Part shown: in pieces, positions 7,616-33,669 of the stretch
How positions within the stretch are numbered: position 1 is the stretch's first letter
Layout: the number at the start of each line of letters is the position of its first letter
Source of the DNA: Stieleria neptunia
Lineage (GTDB): Bacteria; Planctomycetota; Planctomycetia; Pirellulales; Pirellulaceae
DNA length: 64,000 nucleotides
Reading direction: 5' to 3'
Assembly: GCF_007754155.1 (NCBI RefSeq)
Contig: NZ_CP037423.1
Location: 5,424,865-5,488,864, forward strand
Translations under genes and position numbers: made by a program
Notes under the pieces: model-generated
Databases searched by the model: none
What the model saw: the letters and a program-made list of their open reading frames with translations, nothing else
Told to the model about the DNA's origin: nothing

Positions 7616-10603
7616 ATGCCTCGCGTGTATTCTCATCGCCAGGATTTTGCCTCCTGCCTGACCCGCACCAGTCGATTGAGTTGCTACGCGGTCGGTTTGG
7701 GGATTCTGTTTCTTGCCACGTGCCTTCCCGCCGTCGGCGCCCCTGTGCCGCAAGACAAGACCGCAACCTCGTCCGAGCAAGAGGAATTCTTTGAGACCAA
7801 GGTGCGTCCGCTGTTGGTGCAGCATTGCGTCGAGTGCCATGGACCGGAGGACCAGTCGGGTGAACTGAGACTGGATCGCCAAGACCATTTCAAACGTGGC
7901 GGTGGCAGCGGACCGGTTGTGGTTCCCGGTGATGTCAAGGCAAGTCGGCTGATCCGTGCGATCGGCTATCGAGACAACGGCTTGCAAATGCCGCCGGACA
8001 GCAAGTTGCCCGAGGAAGCGATTCGCGTGCTGTCCGATTGGGTTCGCAGCGGGGCGTCTTGGCCGGAAGAAGCGATCGAAACAGATCAGACGGTCAGCAT
8101 GTCGCCGGAGGAGCACATCGAAGCTCAACGACGCTCGCATTGGTCCTACCAACCGATCGCAACCACGCCGCCGCCATCGATCGCGGATCTGGTAGCGCGA
8201 GTGGGTCAAGACCAGGTGGACGCCTTTGGTGGCGATGGCATGACGGCGATCGACCGTTTCGTGCTGGCACGGTTGTCCGACGGCGGACTGGCGCCGAACC
8301 CGCGAGCCGATCGCCGCACCCTGATTCATCGGGCTTACCACGCGCTGTTGGGACTGCCACCGACCTATGAACAGGTCCAGGCATTCGTAGCGGACGAGCA
8401 GCCTGATGCCTTTGCCCGTCTTGTCGATCGTCTATTGGAGAACCCGCACTATGGAGAACGCTGGGCGCGGCACTGGTTGGACATCGCCCGCTACGGGGAC
8501 ACGAAAGGCTACTTGGCCGGAAACAGGGAAACGCGATACCCGTATGCGTTTACCTATCGCGATTACGTGATCGATGCCTTCAACCGCGACAAGCCTTTTG
8601 ACCAATTTGTGATCGAGCAGCTTGCCGCCGACCAACTGGATCTGACCGGTGAGGCCCGCAGCGCGCTGGCGGCGATGGGGTTCTTGACCGTCGGTCGGCG
8701 TTTCATGAACCGCAAACACGACATCATCGATGACCAAATCGACGTGGTCACCCGAGGTTTTCTCGGCATGAGCGTCGCCTGCGCCCGCTGCCACGACCAC
8801 AAGTTCGATGCGATCCCGACGGCCGACTACTACTCGCTGTACGGCGTCTTCGCCAGTTCCGAAGAACCGTCCGAGTTGCCGCTTCTTGGCGATCCACAAT
8901 CCACTCCGGAATACGAGGCGTTCCTCAAAGCAAAGGCAGAAAAACAGCAAGAGGTCGACAAGTGGGTCGAAGAGCGACGCCAAGGAATCGAAAACGAACT
9001 GCGTTCACGCGTCGCCGACTATCTGGTTTACATCGCCAAGTCGCTGCCCCAATACAGCAAGGGGAAGGTGCAGCCCCAAGGGAAACGGGGGGCGTTGCGT
9101 TTGCCGGCCTCGCGGCGATGGCAACAGTATCTGGTCAACGCCAACGCATCGCCGCATCCCGTCTGGGAACTGCTTCGTCAACTGGCCGCACTGCCGCTGG
9201 ATGAGTTTGCCGCGAAGTCGGCCACACTCTTGGACCAAGCCGCGACGGCGACGGAAACGACAGAAGGGCAGGAACCGGCGAATCCGATCCCTCAACGCTT
9301 GCTTGATTCGTTGCGCGAGGCACAGCCGACATCCTTGCCCGAGGCGGCGCAGGTGTTCGGTGATGTGTTGGAAGCGGTCTATGCCCAATGGATCGAAGCA
9401 CGCAAAGCAGATGAGAGTCTGGAACGCTTGCCCGACGCCGGTGACGAAACGTTACGCCAGGTTTTGTGGTCCGCCGACGCACCGACCACCCTGGACAGCG
9501 GCCAGGCGATCGCACATTTGGATCAGGCCGAGCGTGGCAAATACAACCAATTGCTCGGCGGCGTGAACGGGGTCAGCGTCACGCATCCGGGCGCCCCGCC
9601 GCGTGGGATGGTGATGTTCGACAAGCCCAAGCCGGTCGAACCGGTGATCTTTCGCCGCGGCGTGCCCGGCAATCGAGGCGATCGCGTCCCGCGACGATTT
9701 TTGCAGGTCTTGTCGCACGTCGATGGCGGCAAGCCCTTTGAACAGGGAAGCGGGCGTCTGGAATTGGCTCAAGCGATTGCCGACCCGGAAAATCCGCTGA
9801 CCGCACGGGTGATCGTCAATCGCGTCTGGCAACACCAATTCGGCGAAGGCCTCGTCCGCACGCCGAGTGACTTTGGGATTCGCGGTGAACTGCCGACGCA
9901 CCCGGATCTGCTGGACGACCTTGCGGCAGGGCTGATCGCCGACGGCTGGTCAATCAAGCGTCTGCAACGCCGCATCATGCTCTCGGCAACCTGGCAACAG
10001 TCCAGCGACACGCGTCCTGCCGCGATTGAAACAGACCCCGAAAACCGACTGCTGTGGCACATGCCGCGACGGCGGATGGATTTTGAACCGCTGCGTGATC
10101 GATTGTTGTCGGTCGCCGGACGGTTGGATGAATCGGTGGGCGGGCGATCCGTCATGATCCACCAGGATGCCACGCGTCGCGCCCTGTACGCCTACATCGA
10201 TCGCGAAGACTTGCCCGGACTGCTGGCCAGCTTTGATCTTCCCAGCCCCGATGCCAGTCAAGCCAAACGCGCCAAAACAACCGTTCCGCAACAAGCACTT
10301 TACCTGATGAATTCCGGATTCGTCATCGAGCAGGCCAAAGCGTTGGCGGAACGCAGCGAAGCGGAACGCAGCAAAGCGGAACCGGAAGGCCCGACCGGCG
10401 ACGATACCGAACAAGTCGCCACCGACCGCACGGCCGAACGTATCAAGCGACTGTATCGACTCGCCTTGGCTCGCGACCCGGCACCGGCCGAATTGCAGGT
10501 GACGCTTGAATTTGTCACCCCTGGATCAGAGGCCACGTTGGATCCCTGGGTTCAACTCGCGCAAGTTTTGCTCCTGAGCAACGAGTTCGCGTTTGTCGAT
10601 TAA
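7616..10603 (+). CDS. Planctomycete cytochrome C / DUF1549 / DUF1553 protein
   Basis: 995 residues, preceded by GAGAAGAG as ribosome-binding site. The N-terminus has a membrane/signal segment (~22-42). The planctomycete cytochrome C domain carries the haem-type motif CVECH (71-75). DUF1549 covers about 205-420 (TAIDRFVLARL, HYGERWARHWLDIARYGD, and a second CARCH motif). DUF1553 covers about 700-960 (LTARVIVNRVWQHQFG, RTPSDFG, PHRD-like NSGF region). This domain set is a hallmark of planctomycetes and their relatives, nearly always followed, as here, by a DUF1501 gene 24 bases downstream. The pair is suspected to act on sulfated or complex polysaccharides outside the cytoplasm, but no reaction is established. 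Two CxxCH motifs support haem binding. Confidence 0.93.
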   Translation: MPRVYSHRQDFASCLTRTSRLSCYAVGLGILFLATCLPAVGAPVPQDKTATSSEQEEFFETKVRPLLVQHCVECHGPEDQSGELRLDRQDHFKRGGGSGPVVVPGDVKASRLIRAIGYRDNGLQMPPDSKLPEEAIRVLSDWVRSGASWPEEAIETDQTVSMSPEEHIEAQRRSHWSYQPIATTPPPSIADLVARVGQDQVDAFGGDGMTAIDRFVLARLSDGGLAPNPRADRRTLIHRAYHALLGLPPTYEQVQAFVADEQPDAFARLVDRLLENPHYGERWARHWLDIARYGDTKGYLAGNRETRYPYAFTYRDYVIDAFNRDKPFDQFVIEQLAADQLDLTGEARSALAAMGFLTVGRRFMNRKHDIIDDQIDVVTRGFLGMSVACARCHDHKFDAIPTADYYSLYGVFASSEEPSELPLLGDPQSTPEYEAFLKAKAEKQQEVDKWVEERRQGIENELRSRVADYLVYIAKSLPQYSKGKVQPQGKRGALRLPASRRWQQYLVNANASPHPVWELLRQLAALPLDEFAAKSATLLDQAATATETTEGQEPANPIPQRLLDSLREAQPTSLPEAAQVFGDVLEAVYAQWIEARKADESLERLPDAGDETLRQVLWSADAPTTLDSGQAIAHLDQAERGKYNQLLGGVNGVSVTHPGAPPRGMVMFDKPKPVEPVIFRRGVPGNRGDRVPRRFLQVLSHVDGGKPFEQGSGRLELAQAIADPENPLTARVIVNRVWQHQFGEGLVRTPSDFGIRGELPTHPDLLDDLAAGLIADGWSIKRLQRRIMLSATWQQSSDTRPAAIETDPENRLLWHMPRRRMDFEPLRDRLLSVAGRLDESVGGRSVMIHQDATRRALYAYIDREDLPGLLASFDLPSPDASQAKRAKTTVPQQALYLMNSGFVIEQAKALAERSEAERSKAEPEGPTGDDTEQVATDRTAERIKRLYRLALARDPAPAELQVTLEFVTPGSEATLDPWVQLAQVLLLSNEFAFVD

Positions 10604-10627
10604 GACTATCCCACCTTGGATTGTACG

Positions 10628-12076
10628 ATGTCAGATTTCCTTTCCGCACTGAACCGACTGCCCGCGACTCGCCGCGACTTCCTGCGTCGTAGCGGGATCG
10701 GGCTCGGTTCGCTGGGCTTGGCGGGCGTCCTGTCCGACGACACGTCCGGTCTGCTGCACGCTGCGACGGCCACGAACCCGATGGCTCCCAAGACGCCGCA
10801 CTTTGCGCCCAAGGCGAAGGCGGTGATTCACCTGTTCCTCAACGGCGGGCCGTCGCAAGTCGACACGTTTGATCCCAAACCGGCGCTCGACAAATACCAC
10901 GGAAAATCGATTCCATTGAATCTGCGCACCGAACGCGAAACCGGGGCCGCCTATCGATCGCCGTTCAAATTCAAGAAGTATGGCGAAAGCGGGATCGAAG
11001 TCAGCGAGTTGTTCTCGCACGTGGGCGAGATGATCGACGACGTTTGCGTGGTGCGATCCATGCACGCCGACGTGCCCAACCACGAGCCCTCGTTGATGCT
11101 GATGAATTGCGGCAGCGGCCAACTCGTGCGTCCCTCGGTGGGATCCTGGGTCACGTATGGACTGGGCAGCGAAAATCAGAATCTACCGGGCTTCATCTCG
11201 ATGTGCCCGAGCGGCTACCCGATCAAAGGCGCCGAGAACTGGCAGGCCGGTTTTCTGCCCGGTGCGTACCAGGCGACGTACATCGATAGCAGACACCAGG
11301 AAATCGAAAAACTGATCGCGAATATCCGCAACGCAACCGGGCTGCCCCGCGACCAGCAACGTCGGCAATTGGATCTGTTGCAAACGCTAAACGAACGTCA
11401 TCAACAGGCTCGTCAGCAAGATGCCGAACTGGAATCGCGCGTGCAAAGTTTCGAGCTTGCCTATCGCATGCAGATCGAAGCGACCGATGCGTTTGACATC
11501 AGCAACGAACCCCAATCGATTCGCGACATGTACGGCGATTCGATCCAGGCACGACAGATCCTGATCGCGCGGCGACTGGTCGAACGCGGCGTGCGATACA
11601 TCCAACTGTGGCACGGCGCGGGACAGCCCTGGGATAGTCACGACAAGATCGAGAACAACCATCGTCGCTTGGCCGGCGAGTGCTCGCAAGCAATCGGCGC
11701 GTTGTTGAAAGATCTGAAACAACGTTCGTTGCTGGACGACACCCTGGTGGTTTGGGGAGGTGAATTCGGCCGCACGCCGACCGTCGAACTGCCCAAACCG
11801 GGCGCCAATGCCGGGACCAACAGCGGCCGAGATCACAATCATTACGGGTTCACGATGTGGCTGGCCGGCGGCGGAGTGAAAGGAGGTCACGTGCACGGCG
11901 CGACCGATGAGTTCGGTTTCCAGGCGGTCGAAGACCGTGTCCACGTCCATGACCTGCATGCCACCATTTTGCATTTACTGGGATTCGATCATGAGCGGCT
12001 GACGTACCGTTACGCCGGCCGCGATTTCCGACTCACCGACGTTCACGGTAACGTCGCCCACGAGATCATCGCGTAG
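10628..12076 (+). CDS. DUF1501 (sulfatase-like) protein, Tat-exported
   Basis: 482 residues from ATG 10628; a TTG 12 bases upstream is in frame but unlikely. The N-terminus has a twin-arginine signal (R15-R16-D-F-L, then GIGLGSLGLAGVL), so the protein should be exported folded. DUF1501 features include HLFLNGGPSQVDTFDPKP, HADVPNHEPS, GRDHNHYGF and WGGEFGRTP; these histidine- and acid-rich motifs recall the alkaline-phosphatase/sulfatase superfamily metal site. It follows the DUF1549/DUF1553 gene at a 24-base spacing and is almost certainly cotranscribed with it. The exact substrate is unknown. Confidence 0.93.
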   Translation: MSDFLSALNRLPATRRDFLRRSGIGLGSLGLAGVLSDDTSGLLHAATATNPMAPKTPHFAPKAKAVIHLFLNGGPSQVDTFDPKPALDKYHGKSIPLNLRTERETGAAYRSPFKFKKYGESGIEVSELFSHVGEMIDDVCVVRSMHADVPNHEPSLMLMNCGSGQLVRPSVGSWVTYGLGSENQNLPGFISMCPSGYPIKGAENWQAGFLPGAYQATYIDSRHQEIEKLIANIRNATGLPRDQQRRQLDLLQTLNERHQQARQQDAELESRVQSFELAYRMQIEATDAFDISNEPQSIRDMYGDSIQARQILIARRLVERGVRYIQLWHGAGQPWDSHDKIENNHRRLAGECSQAIGALLKDLKQRSLLDDTLVVWGGEFGRTPTVELPKPGANAGTNSGRDHNHYGFTMWLAGGGVKGGHVHGATDEFGFQAVEDRVHVHDLHATILHLLGFDHERLTYRYAGRDFRLTDVHGNVAHEIIA

Positions 12077-12175
12077 CCCGCTAGATCAACGCATCGTGAA
12101 AGCATGAGGTACGGAGACGCGACGCCCCGACACATCAGTCGAAGACACGTTTCCACAGTCACCCTCCTTGAAGAG

Positions 12176-12375
12176 GTCGTGCAGTTTTTAAGTCGTTGAC
12201 AAGAGTGGTTCTTGTCACTCTCCCTCTGGGAAAGTCGAGCGAAGCGAGGAGAGGGTTTGGGTTGCTGCTTGGGGTCACCCATCAAGAGTGAAGTGAACGC
12301 CGCGATGCACCAATCGACCTCCCCTCGCTGCGCTCGACCCTCCTGCCAGGAGGGTGGCTTTAATACTGCACGAAC
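12176..12375. repeat. ~200-bp foldback element
   Basis: The gap 12077-12517 holds a nested inverted repeat. GTCGAGCGAAGCGAGG (12234-12249) pairs with CCTCGCTGCGCTCGAC (12323-12338, one mismatch). Outer arms with TCGTGCAGT at 12177 are mirrored near 12365-12373, and a small hairpin CCCTCCTGCCAGGAGGG sits at 12338-12354. The remaining sequence of the gap shows nothing coding. Confidence 0.65.
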
Positions 12376-12517
12376 TTTAAAAGATTGATGAGGACGTGGG
12401 ATCTTTCTACCGAGGCAACGCAGCGGTATCTGATTCGCATACAATGCCGGCGACAGGACGCCACCGACGACGTTCAGCGACACTCAATCTCTTTTGCACC
12501 TGTTTTCGGACATCAGC

Positions 12518-13270
12518 ATGTATCCCAAAATTGGAAGCGTCTGCACGTCAGGCATTTTGCTGCTCTCGATCGCCACGATCCAAGTCTGTGTCAGCCGGCC
12601 AACTCACGCCGAAGAAGCTTCGCCGCCGACCATGAACGTCAACCGTTGCGAAGACTTCACGGTCAACGGCAAGGGCGACGCGGCGGCGTGGGAGTCGGCC
12701 GAGTGGGTGACGCTAAACCGTCGCCCGAAGGGAAGCCACGACTACACCTCACGTATCAAGATGCTGTACTCCGGGACCGGGGTCTACGTGCTGTTTGACG
12801 GCAGCGATCGAAAGCTGACTGCAACCATGAATGAAGATTTCTTGGACCTCTGGAACGAAGATGTCTATGAATGTTTCTTCTGGACTCACGAAGAAGATCC
12901 GGTTTACTTCGAGTATGAAATTTCACCGCTCGGCTATGAGCTTCCGATTCTGATTCCAAACCTGGACGGCCGTTTCCTGGGCTGGCGTCCGTGGCACTAT
13001 GAGGGCGATCGAAAGATCAAGAAAGCGGTTTCGGCGCAGGGCGGAACAAACGAGTCCATGGCCGCGGTCACCGGCTGGAGTGCGGAAGTGTTTATCCCTT
13101 ACGCGTTGTTGAAGCCGCTTCGAAATCTGCCGCCCGAACCGGGAACGCGATGGCGAGCCAATTTCTATCGCGTGGACTATGACGATCGGACGTCAACCGG
13201 CTGGGATTGGGCGCGAGTGGGTTCAAGTTTCCACGAATTCAAGAAATTCGGCACGCTGGTGTTCCAGTGA
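12518..13270 (+). CDS. Secreted CBM9-like (carbohydrate-binding family 9-like) domain protein
   Basis: 250 residues from ATG 12518, with a signal peptide of about 33 residues ending near THAEE. The rest resembles the single-domain carbohydrate-binding family 9-like fold: FTVNGKGDAAAWESAEWV, then ATMNEDFLDLWNEDVYECFFW, YFEYEISPLG and TGWSAEVFIPYALL. The pattern resembles proteins annotated as endoxylanase-type sugar-binding domains. It has no catalytic domain, so it probably binds glycans or acts as an accessory protein outside the cell. The longer frame from 12494 adds eight residues before the signal and is less likely. Confidence 0.8.
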   Translation: MYPKIGSVCTSGILLLSIATIQVCVSRPTHAEEASPPTMNVNRCEDFTVNGKGDAAAWESAEWVTLNRRPKGSHDYTSRIKMLYSGTGVYVLFDGSDRKLTATMNEDFLDLWNEDVYECFFWTHEEDPVYFEYEISPLGYELPILIPNLDGRFLGWRPWHYEGDRKIKKAVSAQGGTNESMAAVTGWSAEVFIPYALLKPLRNLPPEPGTRWRANFYRVDYDDRTSTGWDWARVGSSFHEFKKFGTLVFQ

Positions 13271-13341
13271 GGCGTCTTGACCCGACCGGGTCATCTGTCA
13301 TGCGATCGTTACCAGCACCAGTGAGAGAAGAGGCTGCAGCA

Positions 13342-13599
13342 ATGTCTCGATCCTTTACGTTGCTGATTGCCCTTTCTGTCGCGTCTTTTTCCGTCGGTAA
13401 CGCTGCCGAACCAGAATACGGAGGCGGTTATTACACGCACATGCGAAACGCAGGCGACCGCTTGCTCGAAGCGATCGACGAGACACTCGATATCGGTCGT
13501 CAGGCAAGTACTCCCGTCCATCTCTTTCATCTCAACGCCGCCGGCAAGCAGAATTGGGGCAAGATGCCGTTGGCGATCGCAACCATCAGGGCGGCGTGA
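13342..13599 (+). CDS. Small secreted protein of unknown function
   Basis: 85 residues from ATG 13342. Residues 1-22 (MSRSFTLLIALSVASFSVGN) are a clear signal peptide ending at NAAEPE. The mature part is about 60 residues, with YGGGYYTHMRNAGDRLLEAI and a short C-terminus. It has no recognisable domain and no cysteines. It sits 72 bases after the CBM9-like gene in the same direction and may share its transcript. The GAGAGAAGAGG stretch upstream could serve as ribosome-binding site. It may be a truncated relic, as the C-terminus is abrupt. Confidence 0.5.
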   Translation: MSRSFTLLIALSVASFSVGNAAEPEYGGGYYTHMRNAGDRLLEAIDETLDIGRQASTPVHLFHLNAAGKQNWGKMPLAIATIRAA

Positions 13600-13746
13600 T
13601 CGAGCGGCCGACGAAGTGAACGACTGGCCCCAAACAGCGGTTCGCCGTAACCGAGAACTTTCCGCACAACATTCCTGCCATTGAAACGATAACAGGTGAT
13701 ACCAGAATCCTGGCTGATCCCGACTCAATTCAATGGAGACACTCCG

Positions 13747-14331
13747 ATGCCGTCAAAGCTTACCGGCCTTTTCAAGACGCTCAGGTGGTCAGATTTCGTG
13801 GGCACGCCCGACGCCAGCAGCTCCCACCTCGCGTTTACGAGCACGTCGTTTTCCGTTCCGACCATCCTGCTCTCGTCACTGGTCCACGACAACATCAACG
13901 TGACGATCAAGTTCAACGCGTCCAAGAGCTGGAAGAAGATGGAGGAGATCAATCGGAAGAAGAAACGCACACCCGATCAGATCCTGAAACATGAGCAGGG
14001 TCACTACGACATTGTCGCCCTGTTGGCCCGCGACCTGTTTATCGAATTGATGCAGCTGAAGGGAAATCACTACAAGAATCAGGCGGAACTGAACAAGGAC
14101 GTCCGCCCCATTCTTGCTAAATACAACGGGACGGAAAAGAAGTTGATGGACAAGTACGACTTGCCGACGGAGTCCGACCATGGGGAAAGCGCCACCGGTC
14201 AGGACAAATGGAATCGAATGATCAAAGAGGCATTCACGACAGCGCGTAGCCCGGCAGTGATGGCCCCGGACGGAAAAGCTTACAAGGTTCCGCTGCTGGA
14301 CGTCTTGGCCAAGAATGGAATCAAACCTTGA
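13747..14331 (+). CDS. DUF922-like putative zinc-dependent protease
   Basis: 194 residues from ATG 13747. The key feature is HEQGHYDIV (82-90), an HExxH zinc-metallopeptidase motif in the exact form typical of DUF922 proteins (HE.GHYDI). The preceding beta-rich segment TSTSFSVP...NVTIKFNASKSW also fits. Unlike most DUF922 proteins it shows no signal peptide, so it may act in the cytoplasm, or the true start may not be recovered. The C-terminal lysine-rich half has no known domain. It follows the small secreted protein by 147 bases. Confidence 0.65.
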   Translation: MPSKLTGLFKTLRWSDFVGTPDASSSHLAFTSTSFSVPTILLSSLVHDNINVTIKFNASKSWKKMEEINRKKKRTPDQILKHEQGHYDIVALLARDLFIELMQLKGNHYKNQAELNKDVRPILAKYNGTEKKLMDKYDLPTESDHGESATGQDKWNRMIKEAFTTARSPAVMAPDGKAYKVPLLDVLAKNGIKP

Positions 14332-14381
14332 CGCCGACCGACCGCGAACGGATTGGAAGGTTGGATGAATGCCAATGCCGC

Positions 14382-20697: not shown

Positions 20698-20729
20698 AAA
20701 AAAGCCGTTTCTCCTGGCAGAGAAACGGC
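20698..20729 (-). terminator. Rho-independent terminator behind tRNA-Leu fragment
   Basis: On the minus strand GCCGTTTCTC, a six-base loop and GAGAAACGGC form a perfect 10-bp stem followed directly by six Ts. It lies immediately downstream of the 3' end of the tRNA-Leu fragment at 20733-20787. Confidence 0.85.
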
Positions 20730-20732
20730 ATA

Positions 20733-20787
20733 GGGCTGACAGGAGTCGAACCTGCACTTCCGAAGAAACTGGAACCTAAATCCAGCG
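20733..20787 (-). pseudogene. 3' fragment of a tRNA-Leu(UAG) gene (attachment-site remnant)
   Basis: The minus strand reads as a tRNA-Leu from the anticodon arm (CTGGA-TTTAGGT-TCCAG, anticodon UAG) through variable arm, T arm (GCAGG-TTCGACT-CCTGT) and 3' acceptor strand CAGCCCT. The D arm and the 5' acceptor strand AGGGCTG that would be needed are absent from the sequence upstream. About 45 of 50 bases match the intact tRNA-Leu at 26057-26138, but the acceptor strand differs. It has its own terminator. It lies 190 bases from an integrase gene, which suggests an integration scar. Confidence 0.75.
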
Positions 20788-20975
20788 TGGAAACGCCTAT
20801 CCATTATAAGCAAGACACGCAACAACCTGGCACAACCCAGAATTTTCCCAGTAAGATTGCCAAGGCAGGTCAGAGGGGGTAGATTCATAACCCCCAAAGA
20901 GCCGGCCACCGACCGAGCGGCAACTCGATCGATGGCCCACGTCAAACCTCAGCCAATTGCCTCCGAGGTCGAACG

Positions 20976-22469
20976 ATGCCGCAGATTACCATCACACAAG
21001 CCCTTTTTCGTCAGCTTGACGATCAAACCGACTACGATGCCGACGGTGGTCACTGGAAGTATCCAGGCAGCGGCAAGATCACCATCGACGGCAAGTGCTA
21101 TCGAGCCCGACAACTCTGGTGGGCTCACAAAAACGACGGCCAATACCCCACCCGCATGGGATCAATCTGCAAGGTCGCCGGATGCTGTAATCCGGATCAT
21201 TGGTTCGACGCGTCGAAGTCTCAACGCCCGCCCTGCACGATCGAGACGGAAGTCAAATATCACTCCCGGCATGGTTACTACTACGTCGCCAACAATCTCA
21301 CCGGAGGCCGGCAAGTCTCCCTGGGCAAGGATCGAGCGATCGCGGTCAATCAATGGCGTGAGGGTAGGTCGATCCTGCAGAGCGGTCTGCCATGGAGTCC
21401 GATCACTTCGGCAAGTCATCACAGCTACACGGTAGGCGCCGTGGCAACGGCCTACCGCTTGGCGTTAGCCGAGCGACTCCAGAAAGGGCAGGTCAGCCCC
21501 GAACATGTTGCCTGCATGAAGGGGAGATGTGACCGTCTGGTGAAGTATTTTGGAGCAAAGACCTTGGTCGCAGCGCTCACGCCGAAACACTTCGACGCGG
21601 TCAGCGAACAGGTCATGATCAGTCGCGTCGATGGATCACGCCGGAACTGGAAAGGCTATCAGTCCGAGATCTCCAAGATGCGGCATATCCTCACATGGGC
21701 GAGGAAACAAAACTTGCTCCCCGCACTGCCCGACTATGGCTCCAACTTCCCAATGGGGCGACAGGCATACGAACGCGAGGCAAACCGCCAACGGCGCACC
21801 AAAGGCGTCAAGATCACGGAGTCCCGTGTCAAGCTGTTTCAGCGGCCCGAAATCACCGCCATGTTGGACGTCGCAGACGATGACGTGAAGGCATGGATTT
21901 ACATTGGATTGAATCTTGCCCTCGAGAACAAAGAACTCAGCTATCTATGCGCTGGGGACTTTTCGCAGGACAGCGCAGGGGAATGGTGGTTTGGAGAGAA
22001 CCGCATCAAGAGCGGTGAACCCCGATTGGCTCACGTCTGGCCTGAGACGATCGACGCGGTCAAGGCGGCTATGAAAGTCCGGCCGGAACCGGCCGAAGAC
22101 GAATTCGAGGATCGACTGTTTCTGAATGCCCACGGGCGACCGCTGAGGCCCGAAGTCAGCAACGTCCAATTCACGCGGCGGTTTCGTTCATGCATGGAGT
22201 TGGCAGACTGTTACAAGGCATACCGAGGTTTCCAATCCTTACGTCATACGTTCCGGACTTACGCCGGCAACTGCGGCGACACCGAGGCAGTTGAATGGGT
22301 GATGGGCCATGAGACGTTTGGGAAGGAATTCACGCGTGAATCATCCACGTACACGCATGCGATTGCACGCACGCGACTGATGGCGGTCAGCAAGGCCGTA
22401 CATGATTGGCTGACCGGCAAGGGCGCCGAGTCGGCAGCAGAACCAATGGTGCAGACATTGTCGTTCTGA
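20976..22469 (+). CDS. Tyrosine recombinase-like integrase with N-terminal HNH-like zinc module
   Basis: 497 residues. The C-terminal ~200 residues are a phage-integrase fold: LRHTFRT (R423), MGH (H445) and the candidate nucleophile Y459 in YTHAIA. The usual first arginine is replaced by E317 (LALENKEL), and the box II histidine three residues before R423 is Q420, so the catalytic set is non-canonical, as in other planctomycete recombinases. The N-terminal ~85 residues contain RARQLWWAH and CKVAGCCNPDHW (65-76), resembling the HNH fold of phage endonucleases but without the first catalytic histidine. It sits beside the tRNA-Leu fragment and is followed by an 18-bp perfect inverted repeat. It probably mobilised the island 20.7-26.06 kb. 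Confidence 0.85.
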   Translation: MPQITITQALFRQLDDQTDYDADGGHWKYPGSGKITIDGKCYRARQLWWAHKNDGQYPTRMGSICKVAGCCNPDHWFDASKSQRPPCTIETEVKYHSRHGYYYVANNLTGGRQVSLGKDRAIAVNQWREGRSILQSGLPWSPITSASHHSYTVGAVATAYRLALAERLQKGQVSPEHVACMKGRCDRLVKYFGAKTLVAALTPKHFDAVSEQVMISRVDGSRRNWKGYQSEISKMRHILTWARKQNLLPALPDYGSNFPMGRQAYEREANRQRRTKGVKITESRVKLFQRPEITAMLDVADDDVKAWIYIGLNLALENKELSYLCAGDFSQDSAGEWWFGENRIKSGEPRLAHVWPETIDAVKAAMKVRPEPAEDEFEDRLFLNAHGRPLRPEVSNVQFTRRFRSCMELADCYKAYRGFQSLRHTFRTYAGNCGDTEAVEWVMGHETFGKEFTRESSTYTHAIARTRLMAVSKAVHDWLTGKGAESAAEPMVQTLSF

Positions 22470-22497
22470 GAATCCCAAACTTTTCTGTGGGGGCGTA

Positions 22498-22535
22498 CTA
22501 GGTCTCAATCAAGCGAACGCTTGATTGAGACCTAG
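22498..22535. repeat. Perfect 18-bp inverted repeat with 2-base spacer
   Basis: CTAGGTCTCAATCAAGCG, then AA, then its exact reverse complement. It begins 28 bases after the integrase stop codon. There is no following T-run, so it is not a classical terminator. It may be a recombinase-binding or regulatory site. The rest of the gap to 22685 shows only the ribosome-binding site GGGGAGAAAGG of the next gene. Confidence 0.9.
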
Positions 22536-22685
22536 GGCAGCGTCCCGACACCGAGCGGCCGGCGGATCGAGGGCATCGCCAATTCTGCAAAGCCCGGGGG
22601 CTATTGGAACGCACCTAGCGAGGGGCTATGTTGTTACCCCACATATGTTGATTCTGCATCGTCGAGGAATTGGGGAGAAAGGCCG

Positions 22686-24140
22686 ATGGAGTCCGATCAA
22701 AAACAAACAAGGTACTGCCCAGAGTGTGGATCAAAGGTCGTCTCGACTGAAGACAAATTCCAATCGCCACAGATTTGCCCTAACTGCAAAACGCGTGTTC
22801 TCTTCCTAAACTACTCGCGAGAACCGATCCCAGCGATTCAGGACGAAAGTGGGAACATAAAGACTCGCGACCCCAAAATCGATCAAAAACTGGCAATCAT
22901 GATCACAGGGACAGTCCTGTTTTTGTTGCTGGTCGGTCTGGTCGCCTTTATCTCGGGACAATTGACCCTGTTTTTCGCGATTGGTTGCTTAATGTTCGTA
23001 GGCGGGGTTGTCGCGATCAGCGTTTTCTTAGACGGGCAAAGCAAGATTGCGGCACTCAACGAGGCCAGCGACGAACTTGATTCACGCGTGCGGTTCCACG
23101 AACAGAACCAAACGCGCCTGGTCCACGCCCATCAAGGATTGAAAACAAACTTCGACGCTTTGGTCGCTGTTGCCCGATCCAACCTTGATGCCGAGTTTGA
23201 GCAATTGTTGCGAGACGCAAAAAACGACCGGGAGGCTGCCGCGTTCGAATACGAAACCGCTTCGGAACATGCGTCCGCCGCGTCCGCAATTAGCAAGCGA
23301 CTGTTTACCGAGGTCCGTAGGAGTATCAAATCTCGTCTTACGCCAAACAATTACGCGACACAAAAAGACCGGTTTTTGAAGACCGTCGCGTTTTGCGAGA
23401 AGAAAGGTTATCCCATCGATCAAGCAACCATCGATGAGTTTGAAGTCGAGTTAAAAAAGGACTATGAAGAGGCCGTTAGGGCACAATTTGCGAAAGAAGA
23501 GCAAGCGAGAATCAAGGAGAAAATCCGCGAAGAGCAAAAGGCAGAGCGTGAGCTTGAACGTGAAATGAAACGTTTGGATGCGGAACGACGGGCAATCGAA
23601 AAAGCGATTGCCGCTGCATTGGAACGCACGCACGATGAACACTCGACAGAAGTCGAAGAATTGCGTCGCAGACTGGCTGAAGCAGAGGCGAAGTCAGCAC
23701 GTGCCATGTCAATGGCTCAACAGACCCGCGCCGGAAACGTCTACGTGATCTCGAATTATGGTAGCTTTGGCGAAGGGGTGTTCAAGATTGGTTTGACGCG
23801 CCGACTTGAGCCACTCGACCGCGTCAAGGAACTCGGCGACGCTTCGGTACCGTTTCCGTTTGATGTCCACATGATGATTTCGAGCGATGATGCCCCGTCA
23901 CTCGAAGCTGCACTACACCGCGAGTTCAAGTCAAACCGTGTTAACCGAATTAACCTTCGAAAGGAGTTTTTTCGGGTGCCGATTGACGAGATAGCCGAAG
24001 CGGTTGAACGCTGCCGCGCAAAGGTAGATTACATCGCAGAACCCGAAGCACTCGAATACAACGAGTCGTTACGGATGACAGACGATGACTTTGAGTTTGT
24101 GTCTTCGCAAGTTGATCCAGAAACCTTGGCAGAAGATTGA
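22686..24140 (+). CDS. Zinc-ribbon, membrane, DUF4041-like and GIY-YIG (T5orf172/MUG113) protein
   Basis: 484 residues, preceded by the strong site GGGGAGAAAGG. Order: zinc ribbon with C11, C14, C31, C34; two membrane spans (~68-90 and ~93-115); a helical region with a long coiled coil (~255-345; IREEQKAERELEREMKR resembles the DUF4041 core); and a C-terminal GIY-YIG-type domain from ~348 (GNVYVISNYGSFGEGVFKIG, then SLEAALHREF as the acidic helix). Such T5orf172/MUG113 nuclease domains occur in phages and in phage-defence proteins. The membrane anchor and zinc ribbon are unusual additions. It probably acts as a membrane-tethered nuclease or DNA sensor; function is inferred. Confidence 0.8.
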   Translation: MESDQKQTRYCPECGSKVVSTEDKFQSPQICPNCKTRVLFLNYSREPIPAIQDESGNIKTRDPKIDQKLAIMITGTVLFLLLVGLVAFISGQLTLFFAIGCLMFVGGVVAISVFLDGQSKIAALNEASDELDSRVRFHEQNQTRLVHAHQGLKTNFDALVAVARSNLDAEFEQLLRDAKNDREAAAFEYETASEHASAASAISKRLFTEVRRSIKSRLTPNNYATQKDRFLKTVAFCEKKGYPIDQATIDEFEVELKKDYEEAVRAQFAKEEQARIKEKIREEQKAERELEREMKRLDAERRAIEKAIAAALERTHDEHSTEVEELRRRLAEAEAKSARAMSMAQQTRAGNVYVISNYGSFGEGVFKIGLTRRLEPLDRVKELGDASVPFPFDVHMMISSDDAPSLEAALHREFKSNRVNRINLRKEFFRVPIDEIAEAVERCRAKVDYIAEPEALEYNESLRMTDDDFEFVSSQVDPETLAED

Positions 24141-24261
24141 TCGACACGCAGAGTTCAGGGTGTTCCGTTCTGCGACTTTGTTGTGGCGCGTTGCCAATGC
24201 CGGCCGGGTGGTTGATCGCGACCGAGCGTTTCATTCAGAGGGCTGGGAGTGGGAGGGGGTG

Positions 24262-25185
24262 ATGTCGAAATTGCGAGTATTTATGCGTGTTCCCAGGCAG
24301 AGACGCGAGTTGGGCTCAATTCCACCACTTGAAGGTCAGGACTCGCTACTTTTGTGGATCGATGAACTCGCCAAGGTGCTCCAGGCTGAGGCACGTTTGG
24401 CCGGGTTGCTAGGGCATGGTGCCATGGTTGGCAATGCAAGAGAGTTCTTTGTGCAGCGCGTACTTCGAACTGTCGTTCCGCCAAGGTTACATTTTGGGAC
24501 AGGGGTCATTGTTGACGCAAACGGAGGCCGATCAAAGCAGATTGACGTCATTGTGTATGACCCGGACTTTCCCGTTATGGAAACGCAGCCGGGCCAAGGG
24601 CTCTACCCTATTGAAGGTGTTATTTGTGCAATTGAGGTCAAGTCTCAAATCGACAAGCCCAAGCTTCACCAAGCCATCGAAAACTGCTACTCAGTGACTT
24701 CATTGTCGCCGTTTGAAGGAGCTGGTTTTCGGCCTTCAACTGCGGTATTCGCGTACGACACGACGGTGAAAGGAAAAGAAGCATTTGCTGATCATGTTTC
24801 AGAATGGATTGACTTAAAGAATGTGCATCTTGAAGACTGCAATAGGCTTCCCGAGATGATTGTTGCGGGTTCAAAGCTCGGACTTTGTCGGGGCGGATGG
24901 TTCCACAACGAGTTGGCAGGTCAGGACAGGAAGAAGATCGACAAGGCAAGTGGAAAGCACGCGGAAATCCTGTTTGCGGCCTGGGAGGTCGGGAATCCAT
25001 TCGCATGGCTATTGATTAACCTGCTTCTCTATTGCACTGTGAGGGCATCCGAGTCGCACAAAGCAGCATTTGAAAGATACTTGCCAATTAGGCAACTCTT
25101 TGATCGCGACTTAGACGGAAGAGAATACTGCTACCACGTAGCGCAATGGAAAAATCGGCCGCGTGCAGATGACGTTGGAGAGTGA
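24262..25185 (+). CDS. DUF6602-like PD-(D/E)xK nuclease-fold protein
   Basis: 307 residues from ATG 24262, chosen because GGAGGGGGTG lies just upstream; the frame extends 59 codons further upstream into the preceding gene. Motifs: GNAREFFVQRVLRTVVPPRL with E61, QIDVIVYD with D95, and CAIEVKSQI with E125 and K127. The E-D-ExK layout is that of the restriction-endonuclease-like superfamily and fits DUF6602 proteins. No separate DNA-recognition domain is seen. The next gene overlaps its stop codon by four bases, so the two products are probably made together. A role in mobile-element defence is inferred. Confidence 0.75.
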   Translation: MSKLRVFMRVPRQRRELGSIPPLEGQDSLLLWIDELAKVLQAEARLAGLLGHGAMVGNAREFFVQRVLRTVVPPRLHFGTGVIVDANGGRSKQIDVIVYDPDFPVMETQPGQGLYPIEGVICAIEVKSQIDKPKLHQAIENCYSVTSLSPFEGAGFRPSTAVFAYDTTVKGKEAFADHVSEWIDLKNVHLEDCNRLPEMIVAGSKLGLCRGGWFHNELAGQDRKKIDKASGKHAEILFAAWEVGNPFAWLLINLLLYCTVRASESHKAAFERYLPIRQLFDRDLDGREYCYHVAQWKNRPRADDVGE

Positions 25186-25667
25186 AACCAAGTAGCCCAG
25201 CGATTCCCAATCAAAGCCAGAGGAGCAGTAGCGAGCCAGTGATAAACGAAATTCTACAGTCCATCAGGCAAGGTCTTGACGAACGCGTACGCAATCCGCT
25301 CCCAGGGGCATTTGTCATCGCATGGTGCATATGCAACTGGAAGGGAATTGCGGTTGTCTTCAGCGACGAGTCGTTCGCAAGCGAGATGAAACTGCTTTCC
25401 GAACTTTATCCAGATTTTTGGTACACAAATTGGCAGACTTGGATTCTGCCCCTGGTCCTTTCAGGCGTTTACGTTCTAGCTAGTCCCTGGATCACTTATG
25501 GAGTGTCCATGTATACGACGCACGTAAACAACAAGAGCAAAGAAAAGAAACTGGAATCCGACGCGAAACTTTTGAATCTCCGTGTGTCAAACGCTCAGAA
25601 GAGACATGACTTGTCGTCCTATGTGTTCGACCAGTCGGCAGGGGCGGAACAAATCGAGATGAGTTGA
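25182..25667 (+). CDS. Two-span membrane protein coupled to the nuclease gene
   Basis: 161 residues from GTG 25182, overlapping the nuclease stop by four bases (GTGA). Two hydrophobic segments are seen: NPLPGAFVIAWCICNWKGI (~40-60) and TWILPLVLSGVYVLASPWI (~85-105). A charged, helical C-terminal tail follows (NNKSKEKKLESDAKLLNLRV). No family recognised with certainty. The tight overlap on both sides suggests a complex with the nuclease upstream and the coiled-coil protein downstream. A pore-forming effector or membrane anchor are both possible. Confidence 0.7.
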   Translation: MKPSSPAIPNQSQRSSSEPVINEILQSIRQGLDERVRNPLPGAFVIAWCICNWKGIAVVFSDESFASEMKLLSELYPDFWYTNWQTWILPLVLSGVYVLASPWITYGVSMYTTHVNNKSKEKKLESDAKLLNLRVSNAQKRHDLSSYVFDQSAGAEQIEMS

Positions 25668-25903
25668 ACGAAAAAATGGACGAGATGCGACAGGAAATCA
25701 GACGACTTGAAACACAAATCGAAGCAATCAAGAAGGAACGCGATTCATTTAAGAATACACAAGCCTCTAATGGGGCGGATCTACAAATGCAGATAGCGAA
25801 GCTTTCAATGTCAGCCGATGAATTAAAGGCGGAGAATAACCGACACAAGGAAACGATCAAGTCGCTCAAGGATCAACTACACGCAATCAAAAATTTTGAG
25901 TGA
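25664..25903 (+). CDS. Small coiled-coil protein
   Basis: 79 residues from TTG 25664 (TTGA overlap with the preceding stop); ATG 25676 is an in-frame alternative. Nearly the whole protein is heptad-like helix: MRQEIRRLETQIEAIKKERD, then ADELKAENNRHKETIKSLKD. No cysteines, signal or membrane span. It is the last gene of the overlapping trio and ends about 115 bases before the terminator of the flanking tRNA. It probably oligomerises with the charged tail of the preceding membrane protein. Confidence 0.65.
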   Translation: MNEKMDEMRQEIRRLETQIEAIKKERDSFKNTQASNGADLQMQIAKLSMSADELKAENNRHKETIKSLKDQLHAIKNFE

Positions 25904-26018
25904 GTGTGTCCGTGCCGACGAAACCATGCAAATCGGTGTGTTGCGTGCGGGTCAGACTTGCCTGAAACCCCGTGCAAACGGCATCTTCGTGTGGACTGGA
26001 TCGGGCCGAAACCAAACG

Positions 26019-26050
26019 AAAAACGCCCGCCGACATTAGCCGGCGGGCGT
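26019..26050 (-). terminator. Rho-independent terminator of tRNA-Leu
   Basis: On the minus strand a perfect 9-bp GC-rich stem (CGCCCGCCG paired with CGGCGGGCG) is followed by TTTTTC. It begins seven bases after the tRNA-Leu 3' end. Confidence 0.88.
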
Positions 26051-26056
26051 CATTCA

Positions 26057-26138
26057 TAGCCGAGACAGGAATCGAACCTGCACCTCCGAAGAGACCGGAA
26101 CCTAAATCCGGCGCGTCTGCCAGTTCCGCCACTCGGCC
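26057..26138 (-). tRNA. tRNA-Leu (anticodon UAG)
   Basis: A complete cloverleaf can be drawn on the minus strand: acceptor GGCCGAG/CTCGGCT, D arm with GGCAGA, anticodon arm CCGGA-TTTAGGT-TCCGG (anticodon at 26102-26104), a long type II variable arm (TCTCTTCGGAGG region) and T arm GCAGG-TTCGATT-CCTGT, discriminator A. CCA is not encoded. It reads CUA leucine codons. It bounds the 20.7-26.06 kb island on the right. Confidence 0.95.
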
Positions 26139-26341
26139 ATTGTTTTTTGGAAATCTGCCCGGAACTGCCGGCATTTGCCAGCAGTCAACGGCATATCAAA
26201 TTCGATTTTTCCGATAAGAACCTCGACATGCTGTGAACTTCGCTGAATCTACGTAAATCCAGCATGTCCGCCACAGCCCCTGATGAGCAATCGACGTGGC
26301 CGCTTGTGCCGCCGGGTGATGACGGCAGCGGTCACGGGCTC

Positions 26342-31236: not shown

Positions 31237-33149
31237 TTTACGACCCTTCATGGATTGCCGTTTTTGTCTTTTTTACGTTTGTCGGTGCGACGGTCGGCCT
31301 GAGTTTTTACTTGGGACGAAAAGCGAAATCGTCGGCGGGTTATTTTGCCGCTCACGGCCAAATCCCGTGGGCGGTCAATGGGATCGCGTTCGCGGGGGAT
31401 TACTTGTCCGCGGCCTCGTTCCTGGGCATCTGCGGAATGATCGCCTCCTACGGCTACGACGGCTTCTTGTATTCGATCGGCTTTTTGGCGGGTTGGATCG
31501 TGGCCTTGTTCGTCATCGCCGAGCCGATGAAACGCTTGGGGCGATTCACCTTCGCCGACGCGTTGGATGCCAAATTTGATTCACGCGGGATCAAAGCCGC
31601 CGCGGGCGCCAGCACGCTGGTGGTCAGCGTGTTTTATCTGATTCCCCAGATGGTCGGTGCCGGATCGCTGATCCAGCCGTTGCTCGGTTTCCCGCACTGG
31701 GTGGGCGTCGTGCTGGTCGGGATTGTCGTGATCACGATCGTCGTCACCGCGGGCATGGTTTCGACGACGTGGGTGCAGTTTCTGAAAGGATCCTTGTTGG
31801 TCATTTTCAGCGCCGTACTGGTCGTGTTGTTGCTCGGCCGCGGGTTTGTGGCCCAGCCCGATGCGTTTGAAACGATCGGCCCGATGCCGGCGTCCGACTT
31901 GAATCAACCCGAGATCGCCGGTCGGTCCGTTTTGCCGGCCGCGGATGGTTGGCAGGAACACGAGGATCTGGTCCGTTTCACGCGCAGCGATGATGTCGGC
32001 TTTGATCTTTTTCACGTCCAACCGGCCGGCGAGGACCAAGTCATCTTGCGGCAGGCGCAAGCGATCCGGGGAACGTCCGACGGAGACCTGGTCGATGGCG
32101 CACCGCTGGGACGCGACGCGAAGCAGAAGGAACTGAAGCCGGTCGGCACGCTCACCAAACTACCCGATGGCCAGTCAGAGACGGGGCCGCTGGGGCCGGT
32201 CAGTTTCTTCAACACCCTCGGTGACAGCGAAGTCGTGCTGTGGCGGAACAAGACGGTCGAGCACGACGATGAAACCAAATCGACGGTCTACTTTCAAAAA
32301 CTGACACCCGGCAACGAAGTCCTCCGCCCCGGTGAACACCCCAAATTCGCCGGCATTCGAAGCGACGCGCCCAGCGGCAAGTTGAATTTTCTTTCGTTGA
32401 TGCTGGCCTTGTTTTGCGGGACCGCATCGCTGCCCCACATCCTGATCCGCTACTACACCGTCAAAGACGGCGCGGCGGCCCGCAAGAGCACGATCGTCGG
32501 GATCGCCAGCATCGGTTTCTTCTACGTCCTGACGCTGTACCTGGGACTCGGTGCGATGACCAGCGGCTCGATGGATTTGACCGACAGCAACATGGCCGCT
32601 CCGCTGCTGGCACGCAGCATCAGCACGTGGTTGTTCGCGATCATTTCCGCGATCGCATTCACGACGGTGCTGGGGACCGTCAGCGGATTGATCCTGGCCA
32701 GCAGTGGCGCCGTCGCCCACGACATCCTGGTCGGCGTGGTCGGCATGCAGTTGTCCGAAGCCAAAAAGGTACGGATCGCAAAGATCGCCGCGGTCGTCGT
32801 CGGCGCGATCGCGATCGTGCTGGGAATCCTGTTCAAAGAAATGAACGTCGGCTACCTGGTCGGCTGGGCCTTCAGTGTCGCCGCCAGCGCCAACCTGCCC
32901 GCGTTGGTGATGCTGCTGTTCTGGAAAGCGACGACCAAGGAAGGCATCGTGGCCAGCGTGCTGGTCGGCATGACCAGCTCACTCGGTTGGATCCTGCTGT
33001 CGGCCGACACCTACAAGAGCGTCTATGGCTGGGATCCGGAGCTGGCCTATGCACCGTTCAGCCAACCCGGCATCGTCACGATTCCCTTGGCGTTTGTCAC
33101 GCTGATTGTGGTTTCGTTGATGACACAGCCGAAAGCGGCCGCGGCTTGA
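31233..33149 (+). CDS. Sodium:solute symporter, acetate permease (ActP) type
   Basis: 638 residues from GTG 31233. Sodium:solute symporter family with many membrane spans; motifs include FYLGRKAKSSAGYFAAHGQI, GIAFAGDYLSAASFLGICG and ASLPHILIRYYTV, the last typical of ActP. It probably imports acetate or another short monocarboxylate with sodium. Between about residues 210 and 385 there is a long hydrophilic insert (FETIGPMPASDLNQPEIAG to GEHPKFAGIRSDAPSGK) that must form a large extramembrane domain. Coupled to the DUF485 gene. A foldback array begins at the stop codon. Confidence 0.9.
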   Translation: MIYDPSWIAVFVFFTFVGATVGLSFYLGRKAKSSAGYFAAHGQIPWAVNGIAFAGDYLSAASFLGICGMIASYGYDGFLYSIGFLAGWIVALFVIAEPMKRLGRFTFADALDAKFDSRGIKAAAGASTLVVSVFYLIPQMVGAGSLIQPLLGFPHWVGVVLVGIVVITIVVTAGMVSTTWVQFLKGSLLVIFSAVLVVLLLGRGFVAQPDAFETIGPMPASDLNQPEIAGRSVLPAADGWQEHEDLVRFTRSDDVGFDLFHVQPAGEDQVILRQAQAIRGTSDGDLVDGAPLGRDAKQKELKPVGTLTKLPDGQSETGPLGPVSFFNTLGDSEVVLWRNKTVEHDDETKSTVYFQKLTPGNEVLRPGEHPKFAGIRSDAPSGKLNFLSLMLALFCGTASLPHILIRYYTVKDGAAARKSTIVGIASIGFFYVLTLYLGLGAMTSGSMDLTDSNMAAPLLARSISTWLFAIISAIAFTTVLGTVSGLILASSGAVAHDILVGVVGMQLSEAKKVRIAKIAAVVVGAIAIVLGILFKEMNVGYLVGWAFSVAASANLPALVMLLFWKATTKEGIVASVLVGMTSSLGWILLSADTYKSVYGWDPELAYAPFSQPGIVTIPLAFVTLIVVSLMTQPKAAAA

Positions 33150-33669
33150 ATCAGAGAGCGGCAACAGTGGGATAGGCTTCCAGCCTGTCATCTTCAACTC
33201 ATTCCAAGGCTCCGCCTGGGAACGCGAGGCAGGTGTGGCTCTGCCACACGCCGTTCACGGGCGGGAGGCGGGAGCCTCCGTGACAGTGTGTTCCCAGGCG
33301 GAGCCCGGGAACAAGGGAATCAGAGAGCGGCAACAGTGGGATAGGCTTCCAGCCTGTCATCTTCAACTCGTTCCAAGGCTCCGCCTGGGAACGCGAGGCA
33401 GCTGTGGCTCTGCCACACGCGGTTCACGGGCGGGAGGCGGGAGCCTCCGTGACAGTGTGTTCCCAGGCGGAGCCCGGGAACAAGGGAAATGTGGGATAGG
33501 CTTCCAGCCTGTCATCTTCAACTCATTCCAAGGCTCCGCCTGGGAACGCGAGGCAGGTGTGGCTCTGCCACACGCCGTTCACGGGCGGGAGGCGGGAGCC
33601 TCCGTGACAGTGTGTTCCCAGGCGGAGCCCGGGAACAAGGGAAGGCAACAGTGGGATAGGCTTCCAGCC
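33149..33669. repeat. Tandem array of a ~165-bp foldback repeat (units 1-3 and start of unit 4)
   Basis: Units run 33149-33317, 33318-33486 and 33487-33641; unit 4 starts at 33642 and is interrupted at 33670. Each unit holds the word pair GGCTCCGCCTGGGAAC and its complement GTTCCCAGGCGGAGCC flanking ~85 bases with smaller hairpins (GTGTGGCTCTGCCACAC). The rest of unit 4 is at 35110-35152 and 36852-36962. No credible protein is encoded. Confidence 0.92.

What the first reader, a model, noticed from the sequence alone, without database searches (positions are those of the whole stretch)
20733..26138. Genomic island between a tRNA-Leu scar and an intact tRNA-Leu, with a possible new defence set
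Seen: a tRNA-Leu 3' fragment with its own terminator, an integrase, a zinc-ribbon/membrane/DUF4041/GIY-YIG protein, then three genes overlapping by four bases each (nuclease fold, membrane protein, coiled coil), then intact tRNA-Leu(UAG). Known: islands in tRNA genes often carry anti-phage systems, and T5orf172 and PD-(D/E)xK nucleases are common in them. Inferred: the four non-integrase genes act together as membrane-associated nucleic-acid surveillance. I know of no described system with this gene order.
Basis: partly seen in the sequence, partly recalled or inferred. Interest (0 to 1): 0.78.

Follow-up and report, generated by a model that had tools for sequence, protein, structure and literature searches.

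The report
Defence island that replaced its host's tRNA
A small piece of mobile DNA in a planctomycete bacterium has cut the host's leucine tRNA gene in two and carries its own leucine tRNA gene in exchange, alongside genes that look like anti-phage nucleases, a trick so far described mainly for bacterial viruses.

Summary
In 12 of 12 same-genus rplI loci, rplI is followed by one identical 82-nt tRNA-Leu(UAG). The intact tRNA-Leu(UAG) at 26056-26139 is therefore island cargo, with a different acceptor stem. It is the only canonical-length tRNA-Leu(UAG) found in the genome. The island is 5,477 bp. Its integrase's relatives mostly sit before an intact tRNA (28 of 35 loci), and seven leave a 38-40-nt displaced tRNA 5' half. 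This island kept a 10-bp core, rebuilt no tRNA and carries its own, which is the logic of phage "tRNA-dependent lysogeny". Cargo: a SNIPE/PD-Lambda-1 relative (known defence family), a NucC-fold DUF6602 nuclease, and a membrane/coiled-coil protein that is one ORF in relatives but two here. Homologues of these three were never found together in the loci searched, so a four-gene system is not supported. I call it a new variant of a known kind.

The parts
20698..20729 (-). terminator-like hairpin and T run after the native tRNA 3' half; a like element follows the intact native tRNA in several relatives
   Evidence: sequence, by eye; blastn of relatives' loci runs on through it in several, e.g. 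94% over 108 nt for L007; in L004, L006, L014, L015 the match ends near the tRNA
20731..20787 (-). native tRNA-Leu(UAG) 3' part (nt 26-82 of 82), no longer joined to a 5' part
   Evidence: 57 of 57 nt identical to the tRNA of 12 same-genus genomes
20777..20786 (-). att core copy, integrase side (GCTGGATTTA)
   Evidence: direct repeat D2
20976..22469 (+). tyrosine integrase, 497 aa, with an endonuclease-like (HNH-like, as I recall the motif) N-terminus
   Evidence: phrog_1 E 2.1e-17 and phrog_1872 (endonuclease) E 2.7e-4; no Pfam hit; 47-48% full-length identity to P0027/P0028, which carry PF00589
22498..22535 (.). perfect 18-bp inverted repeat with a 2-nt loop between integrase and p2, function unknown
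   Evidence: I1
22686..24140 (+). p2: SNIPE/PD-Lambda-1 relative: zinc-ribbon-like N-terminus, two hydrophobic stretches (about 65-119), partial DUF4041-like region, GIY-YIG nuclease
   Evidence: PADLOC PD-Lambda-1 E 1.7e-84; T5orf172 E 1.6e-16; phrog_1847 E 5.1e-89
24262..25185 (+). p3: DUF6602 protein with NucC-like PD-(D/E)xK fold
25182..25667 (+). p4: N-terminal membrane part of a membrane/coiled-coil protein; likelier start GTG 25239
   Evidence: P0025 41% identity; phrog_4780 E 7.1e-13
25664..25903 (+). p5: coiled coil, in relatives the C-terminal part of the p4 protein
   Evidence: alignment of p4+p5 with P0025; homologues as one ORF
26018..26055 (-). terminator-like hairpin of the island tRNA
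   Evidence: inverted repeat I4 followed by a T run on the - strand
26056..26139 (-). island-borne complete tRNA-Leu(UAG), acceptor stem GGCCGAG/CTCGGCT
   Evidence: ARAGORN; Rfam RF00005 52.8 bits; 69 of 82 nt identical to the native tRNA
26254..26280 (-). native tRNA-Leu 5' remnant (14 exact nt, small deletion, then att core 26254-26263)
   Evidence: score 32 against at most 24 in 1000 dinucleotide shuffles; flanking spacer aligns to G002, G005 and G012 up to the tRNA start

Best explanation
A 5,477-bp integrative island recombined, by its tyrosine integrase, through a core of about 10 bp (GCTGGATTTA) in the anticodon arm of the only canonical tRNA-Leu(UAG) gene, behind rplI. Neither junction now holds a rebuilt tRNA: the native 5' part stayed at the far end and the native 3' part with its terminator at the integrase end. 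The cell survives because the island carries a complete tRNA-Leu(UAG) with its own terminator. This works like phage tRNA-dependent lysogeny. The cargo adds a membrane-anchored SNIPE-type GIY-YIG nuclease, most likely acting alone on entering phage DNA, a NucC-fold nuclease, and a membrane/coiled-coil protein now in two frames. Shown: the split native gene, the different complete tRNA inside the island, the unbroken tRNA in relatives, the protein families. Inferred: that the integrase made the break, that the island tRNA is functional and needed, that the cargo defends, and that the island is a relic of a satellite or prophage. The confidence is for this end state; the order of events is left to the first rival.
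For: Native tRNA identical in 12 of 12 same-genus loci; its 3' part exact at 20731-20787 and its 5' part at 26254-26280, in the right order and orientation. The spacer up to the 5' part aligns to relatives (L004: 109 identities, 35 mismatches, no gaps). Three of 7 wider loci have both flanks and no island. Other canonical-length Leu tRNAs found are CAA, CAG, TAA and GAG, one each outside the arrays; UAG of that length is only in the island, and the anticodon-arm pattern occurs only in the scar and the island copy. Integrase relatives: an intact tRNA, 5' end toward the integrase, at 28 of 35 loci examined, and a 38-40-nt displaced 5' half in 7 (3 of 8, 4 of 18), ending in the same anticodon arm. 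Precedent: PMC10865867 (abstract, introduction, start of results, passages, sections 10 and 11 read). p2 in the PD-Lambda-1 family (PMC13190303); p3 NucC fold.
Against: Two tRNA arrays in the same genome hold short tRNA-Leu(UAG) genes of 73-74 nt, so the native gene may not have been indispensable. The island tRNA (69 of 82 nt like the native one) is as similar to the native body (92.8% over 69 nt) as to its best hits in another family (92% over 73 nt), so its donor is unknown, and change after entry is possible. In the three loci with both flanks, 2.9-9.4 kb of other DNA lies left of the tRNA, so no perfectly clean empty site was seen. No other island with the same cargo was found. Excision and expression are untested. 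A TATAAT-like box upstream of the orphan 3' half (by eye) would also fit an island that first rebuilt the tRNA and lost that 5' half later. Five of 35 relatives' loci show no intact tRNA (3 of the 5 near contig ends) and 2 have one in the other orientation.
Confidence: 0.78

Rival explanations
1. Same end state, other history: the island first rebuilt the native tRNA with an element-borne 5' half, as its integrase relatives do. The complete tRNA was acquired later, and the rebuilt tRNA then lost its 5' half.
For: Relatives rebuild the tRNA from an element-borne 5' half; same geometry of integrase and 3' half.
Against: No trace of the native tRNA 5' half upstream of the 3' half (score 11, reached by 493 of 500 shuffles), nor of the island tRNA's 5' half (score 11, same call, no shuffles made).
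Confidence: 0.3
2. Conventional island: the intact tRNA at 26056-26139 is the native gene, restored at its 3' end, and 20731-20787 is the displaced native 3' end.
For: Gross geometry fits: intact tRNA at one end, 3' fragment at the other.
Against: The native 5' end lies outside the intact tRNA at 26267-26280, the acceptor stem is not the native one, and the scar, not the intact gene, matches the genus.
Confidence: 0.04
3. A four-gene membrane-associated defence system (p2-p5) acts as one unit.
For: All four are codirectional on one small island, and two of them are nucleases.
Against: No co-occurrence at 30 loci and 21 places of p3 homologues and 49 viral loci of p4 homologues; the p2 family is described as one protein in E. 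coli (PMC13190303, abstract and passages); 121 bp separate p2 from p3; p4+p5 look like one split gene.
Confidence: 0.08
4. p3 and p4/p5 form a two-gene module (nuclease plus membrane sensor) independent of p2.
For: Tight spacing, possible 4-bp overlap.
Against: No second example found; the closest p4 relative, P0025, is on a 2.1-kb contig whose context could not be read.
Confidence: 0.3

Closest known systems
tRNA-dependent lysogeny of actinobacteriophages (Guerrero-Bustamante and Hatfull 2024, PMC10865867; abstract, introduction, start of results, passages, sections 10 and 11 read)
   Different: Here a 5.5-kb island without recognised phage structural genes, in a planctomycete, with defence-type cargo; the integrase family normally uses the tRNA 5' half rather than the 3' half; dependence not tested.
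Sinorhizobium meliloti prophages and islands that carry or replace tRNA genes (PMC11476347, section 2.3 and passages read)
   Same: There too tRNA-Leu(UAG) is reported inactivated by a prophage that supplies a foreign tRNA-Leu(UAG); three genomic islands with incomplete prophages carry tRNA-Thr genes.
   Different: Other phylum; those islands contain incomplete prophages.
5'-half integrations such as pTN3 in archaea (PMC8371274, passages read)
   Same: The integrase relatives here displace the tRNA 5' half and rebuild the gene from the element side.
   Different: The window's island does not rebuild the tRNA at all.
SNIPE / PD-Lambda-1 (PMC13190303, abstract and passages read)
   Same: GIY-YIG nuclease at the C-terminus, linker helix, N-terminal membrane part.
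   Different: Zinc-ribbon-like N-terminus plus two hydrophobic stretches further in; only the second half of the DUF4041 region aligns.
NucC nucleases
   Different: 15-23% identity in the structure alignments, longer, and no cyclase or CRISPR gene among the island's proteins.

Membership tests
tRNA-dependent lysogeny / integration | tyrosine integrase | tested here: met
   phrog_1 E 2.1e-17; PF00589 in full-length relatives P0027/P0028
tRNA-dependent lysogeny / integration | att site within a host tRNA gene | tested here: met
   native tRNA-Leu(UAG) split, both parts found
tRNA-dependent lysogeny / integration | short core, no functional tRNA at either junction | tested here: met
   10-bp shared core GCTGGATTTA; junctions at 20777-20787 and 26254-26266
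[quoted passage not shown]
   tRNA-Leu(UAG) 26056-26139
tRNA-dependent lysogeny / integration | disrupted tRNA is non-redundant | tested here: inconclusive
   no other canonical-length copy found, but two 73-74-nt tRNA-Leu(UAG) genes in tRNA arrays
tRNA-dependent lysogeny / integration | element tRNA required for survival after integration | not testable with these tools
   needs a deletion experiment
tRNA-dependent lysogeny / integration | the element is a temperate phage | tested here: not met
   five ORFs, none recognised as a phage structural gene; hence 'works like', not 'is'
Conventional tRNA genomic island | the native tRNA is rebuilt at one junction | tested here: not met
SNIPE (PD-Lambda-1) | C-terminal GIY-YIG nuclease of this subfamily | tested here: met
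   PADLOC E 1.7e-84; up to 68.5% identity over that domain to a protein annotated DUF4041
SNIPE (PD-Lambda-1) | DUF4041 domain | tested here: inconclusive
   no Pfam match; second half aligns, probability 97.5
SNIPE (PD-Lambda-1) | N-terminal membrane anchor | tested here: met
   hydropathy only, 19-residue windows starting at 65-101
SNIPE (PD-Lambda-1) | blocks phage DNA entry | not testable with these tools
   needs phage assays
NucC | PD-(D/E)xK fold of the NucC type | tested here: met
NucC | encoded with a CD-NTase or type III CRISPR | tested here: not met
   none among the five island proteins; the rest of the genome was not searched
NucC | binds cA3 | not tested
   no ligand-pocket comparison made

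The most novel reading that the evidence does not exclude
tRNA-dependent integration is not only a phage life-cycle trick. A compact defence island has made itself indispensable by destroying the host's only canonical tRNA-Leu(UAG) and supplying a replacement. Because the displaced native 5' part has since lost bases, excision could no longer restore a working tRNA, so island and host are locked together: addiction without a toxin. It arose within an integrase family that otherwise rebuilds tRNAs from the 5' side.
Probability: 0.45. Interest if true: 0.7.

Novelty: new variant of a known kind. Interest (0 to 1): 0.55.

Why it matters
It would extend tRNA-dependent integration from temperate phages to a small defence island, and to a phylum for which the listings of my searches showed no report of it (listings only, apart from PMC10865867, PMC11476347 and PMC12429752). 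It shows the change beside its own control: relatives of the integrase keep a 38-40-nt tRNA half and rebuild the gene, this one shares 10 bp and swapped the whole tRNA. That makes a question left open in the discussion of PMC10865867 (how dependent systems relate to rebuilding ones) testable by comparison. It also offers a toxin-free way for a defence island to be retained, and a warning for annotation: the intact tRNA at an island's edge need not be the native one.

Tried and rejected
Rejected: the conventional restored-tRNA model (native 5' part found elsewhere). Rejected as unsupported: a four-gene system (no co-occurrence). Rejected: family f21 as donor of the island tRNA on the strength; the match is no better than to the genus's own tRNA. 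A stricter pattern for the tRNA 5' part over 397 genomes of the class gave 13 genomes with at most 1 mismatch, own included. Ten were read with ARAGORN: the own copy, two other UAG tRNAs and seven CAA or UAA tRNAs; three were not read. One of the two, in G655 of the same family, has the same acceptor stem and T arm but only 68 of 82 nt identical, and no rplI within 1.5 kb; the acceptor type thus exists in the family, but the donor stays unknown.

Led nowhere: integrase scan of genome contigs (6 pattern matches, no relative); p3 in viral contigs (55 pattern matches, no relative); DUF6602 in papers (0). Only 1 of 10 proteins from three relatives' islands hit PADLOC, weakly (E 6e-10), while several are phage- or satellite-like (capsid, primase-helicase, tail), so 'all these islands are defence islands' is not supported. 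The context of P0025, P0027 and P0028 (contigs of 2.1-3.1 kb) could not be read. Of 9 integrase matches outside the window, one (G444) was not examined; of more than 100 listed, 27 were. Structure searches: only NucC stood far above the rest; unlisted folds are not excluded.
Full report
WHAT IS THERE. The window lies at G000:C1:5424865-5488864 of one 10.98-Mb contig. One genome listed as the same phylum, G381, has a contig with the length and DUF6602 place of a record titled Planctomycetota, so the phylum is taken as Planctomycetota. The region holds, left to right: a tRNA-Leu 3' fragment with a terminator; a 497-aa tyrosine integrase; p2, a GIY-YIG protein; p3, a DUF6602 protein; p4, a membrane protein; p5, a short coiled coil; and a complete tRNA-Leu(UAG).

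THE NATIVE tRNA. The rplI protein was searched in 60 relatives (58 with a match). Of 13 other same-genus genomes 12 had it; G008 (85% complete) did not. In all 12, one tRNA-Leu follows rplI on the same strand, and the 82 nt are identical in 12 of 12. The window's fragment (20731-20787) equals nt 26-82 of that tRNA, 57 of 57. The match runs on through the terminator in several relatives and ends near the tRNA in L004, L006, L014 and L015. So the fragment is the native gene's 3' part. The intact tRNA has a different acceptor stem (GGCCGAG/CTCGGCT instead of GGGGCTG/CAGCCCT) and paired changes in the anticodon stem and variable arm, 69 of 82 nt identical in all, so it is not the native gene.

THE OTHER HALF. 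On the minus strand at 26267-26280, beyond the 5' end of the intact tRNA (26139), the native 5' end GGGGCTGTGGCGGA is found exactly, followed by three bases where the native gene has twelve, and then the core GCTGGATTTA (26254-26263). The score of 32 was not reached in 1000 dinucleotide shuffles (maximum 24). The spacer between rplI and this remnant aligns with the relatives' spacer right up to the tRNA start (L004: 109 identities, 35 mismatches, 0 gaps; L005: 107, 34, 6; L006: 63, 16, 7; L007 and L008 align less well). The repeat finder independently shows the core three times: left junction, intact tRNA, right junction (D2). The island is thus 20777-26253, 5,477 bp, and the intact tRNA is inside it.

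EMPTY SITES AND COPY NUMBER. Seven wider same-genus loci were compared by tblastx. Three (G002, G005, G012) show both flanks and an unbroken tRNA, with about 5.0, 2.9 and 9.4 kb of other DNA between the tRNA and the left-flank match; the other four share only the rplI side. A whole-genome tRNA scan of G000 gave 88 matches (150 of 282 first-look candidates scored). I read the Leu/Ser-length ones and both arrays with ARAGORN: canonical-length Leu tRNAs are CAA, CAG, TAA and GAG, one each outside the arrays. UAG of that length is only in the island, and the pattern GGNTTTAGGTNCCNGT occurs twice, once in the scar and once in the island. In 12 of 13 other same-genus genomes it occurs once, with the native letters; in G008 the single match differs. 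Caution: two tRNA arrays (L063 with 28 and L064 with 23 tRNAs) each contain a short tRNA-Leu(UAG) of 73-74 nt, so essentiality is inferred, not shown.

WHAT THE INTEGRASE FAMILY NORMALLY DOES. A phylum search (7 of 392 genomes, own included) and a family search with a four-row alignment (81 of 241 genomes, own included) gave relatives. I examined 35 loci besides the window's: 8 of the 9 other matches (one is a second copy in G000), and 27 of the more than 100 listed (19 and 8 further ones; 10 of the 18 repeat). At 28 of 35 an intact tRNA lies with its 5' end toward the integrase start; 2 have a tRNA in the other orientation; 5 have no intact one, 3 of these (L252, L269, L270) near contig ends. 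A displaced copy of the tRNA 5' half was found at the far side in 3 of 8 and 4 of 18 (6 of these 18 stretches are under 8 kb). Six were read base by base and match over 38-40 nt, ending in or just after the anticodon loop; the seventh (L123/L139) is 97.5% over 40 nt. So at least these seven displace the 5' half and rebuild the tRNA from their own side, the reverse of the usual orientation. The window's island has the same geometry (integrase start 189 bp from the 3' half), but the shared stretch is down to 10 bp and no native 5' half precedes the 3' half (score 11, reached by 493 of 500 shuffles).

MECHANISM. Short core, no rebuilt tRNA, and an element-borne tRNA of the same isotype are the defining points of tRNA-dependent lysogeny (PMC10865867). 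Replacement of tRNA-Leu(UAG) by a prophage-borne copy, and three islands carrying tRNA genes, are reported in S. meliloti (PMC11476347). I therefore read the island as a non-phage user of the same logic, probably derived from a satellite or prophage: proteins from three relatives' islands include a capsid, a primase-helicase and a tail protein, and p4 relatives include phage genes. These origins are inferences.

DO THE CARGO GENES BELONG TOGETHER? p4 and p2 were sought around p3 homologues at 30 named loci and 21 phylum places (six refetched with wider flanks; one place, G381, is in both sets), with flanks from about 0.2 to 8 kb, and p2 and p3 around 49 viral p4 loci: none. One related-integrase locus (L276) has a DUF6602 match about 11 kb from the integrase. 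Absence at this depth does not exclude a rare pair.

VERDICT. A real island; the tRNA swap is the remarkable part. Two of the cargo proteins belong to families linked to defence, and the set as a system is not supported.

Noticed in passing
L283 (G005:C122:34300-54100), 9226-14368: An array of 24 tRNA genes lies about 8-14 kb from an integrase of the island's family that sits beside a tRNA-Met. If it is cargo of that element, this integrase family also moves tRNA arrays.
   Followed up: partly
G000:C1:582500-597000 (L063) and 7773500-7782000 (L064): Two arrays of 28 and 23 often odd, short tRNA genes in the window's own genome; L064 has largely the order of the G005 array.
   Followed up: partly
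L120 (G000:C1:4486500-4506000): A second integrase of the family beside tRNA-Arg(TCT), and a second SNIPE-like gene (578 aa from the first Met; 52% identical over p2 residues 303-463) about 8 kb away.
   Followed up: partly
window 22498-22535: Perfect 18-bp inverted repeat with a 2-nt loop between integrase and p2; 17 nt of its arm recur with one mismatch at four other places in the genome.
   Followed up: partly
window 20976-21410: Integrase N-terminus resembles an endonuclease family (phrog_1872 E 2.7e-4; HNH-like by recalled motif). In the window, P0027 and P0028 the expected catalytic His (recalled) is replaced, so it may be a DNA-binding remnant.
   Followed up: partly
window 33148-33643: 169-bp tandem repeat, 3 copies, 92% matches.
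   Followed up: no
window 1439-1513: 14-bp perfect tandem repeat, 5.4 copies.
   Followed up: no
L153 (Vibrio aerogenes plasmid NZ_AP024863.1): A 442-aa p4-like membrane protein is encoded directly after two DUF262 genes, one of them annotated as an HNH endonuclease family protein, a possible other partnership for this membrane domain.
   Followed up: no
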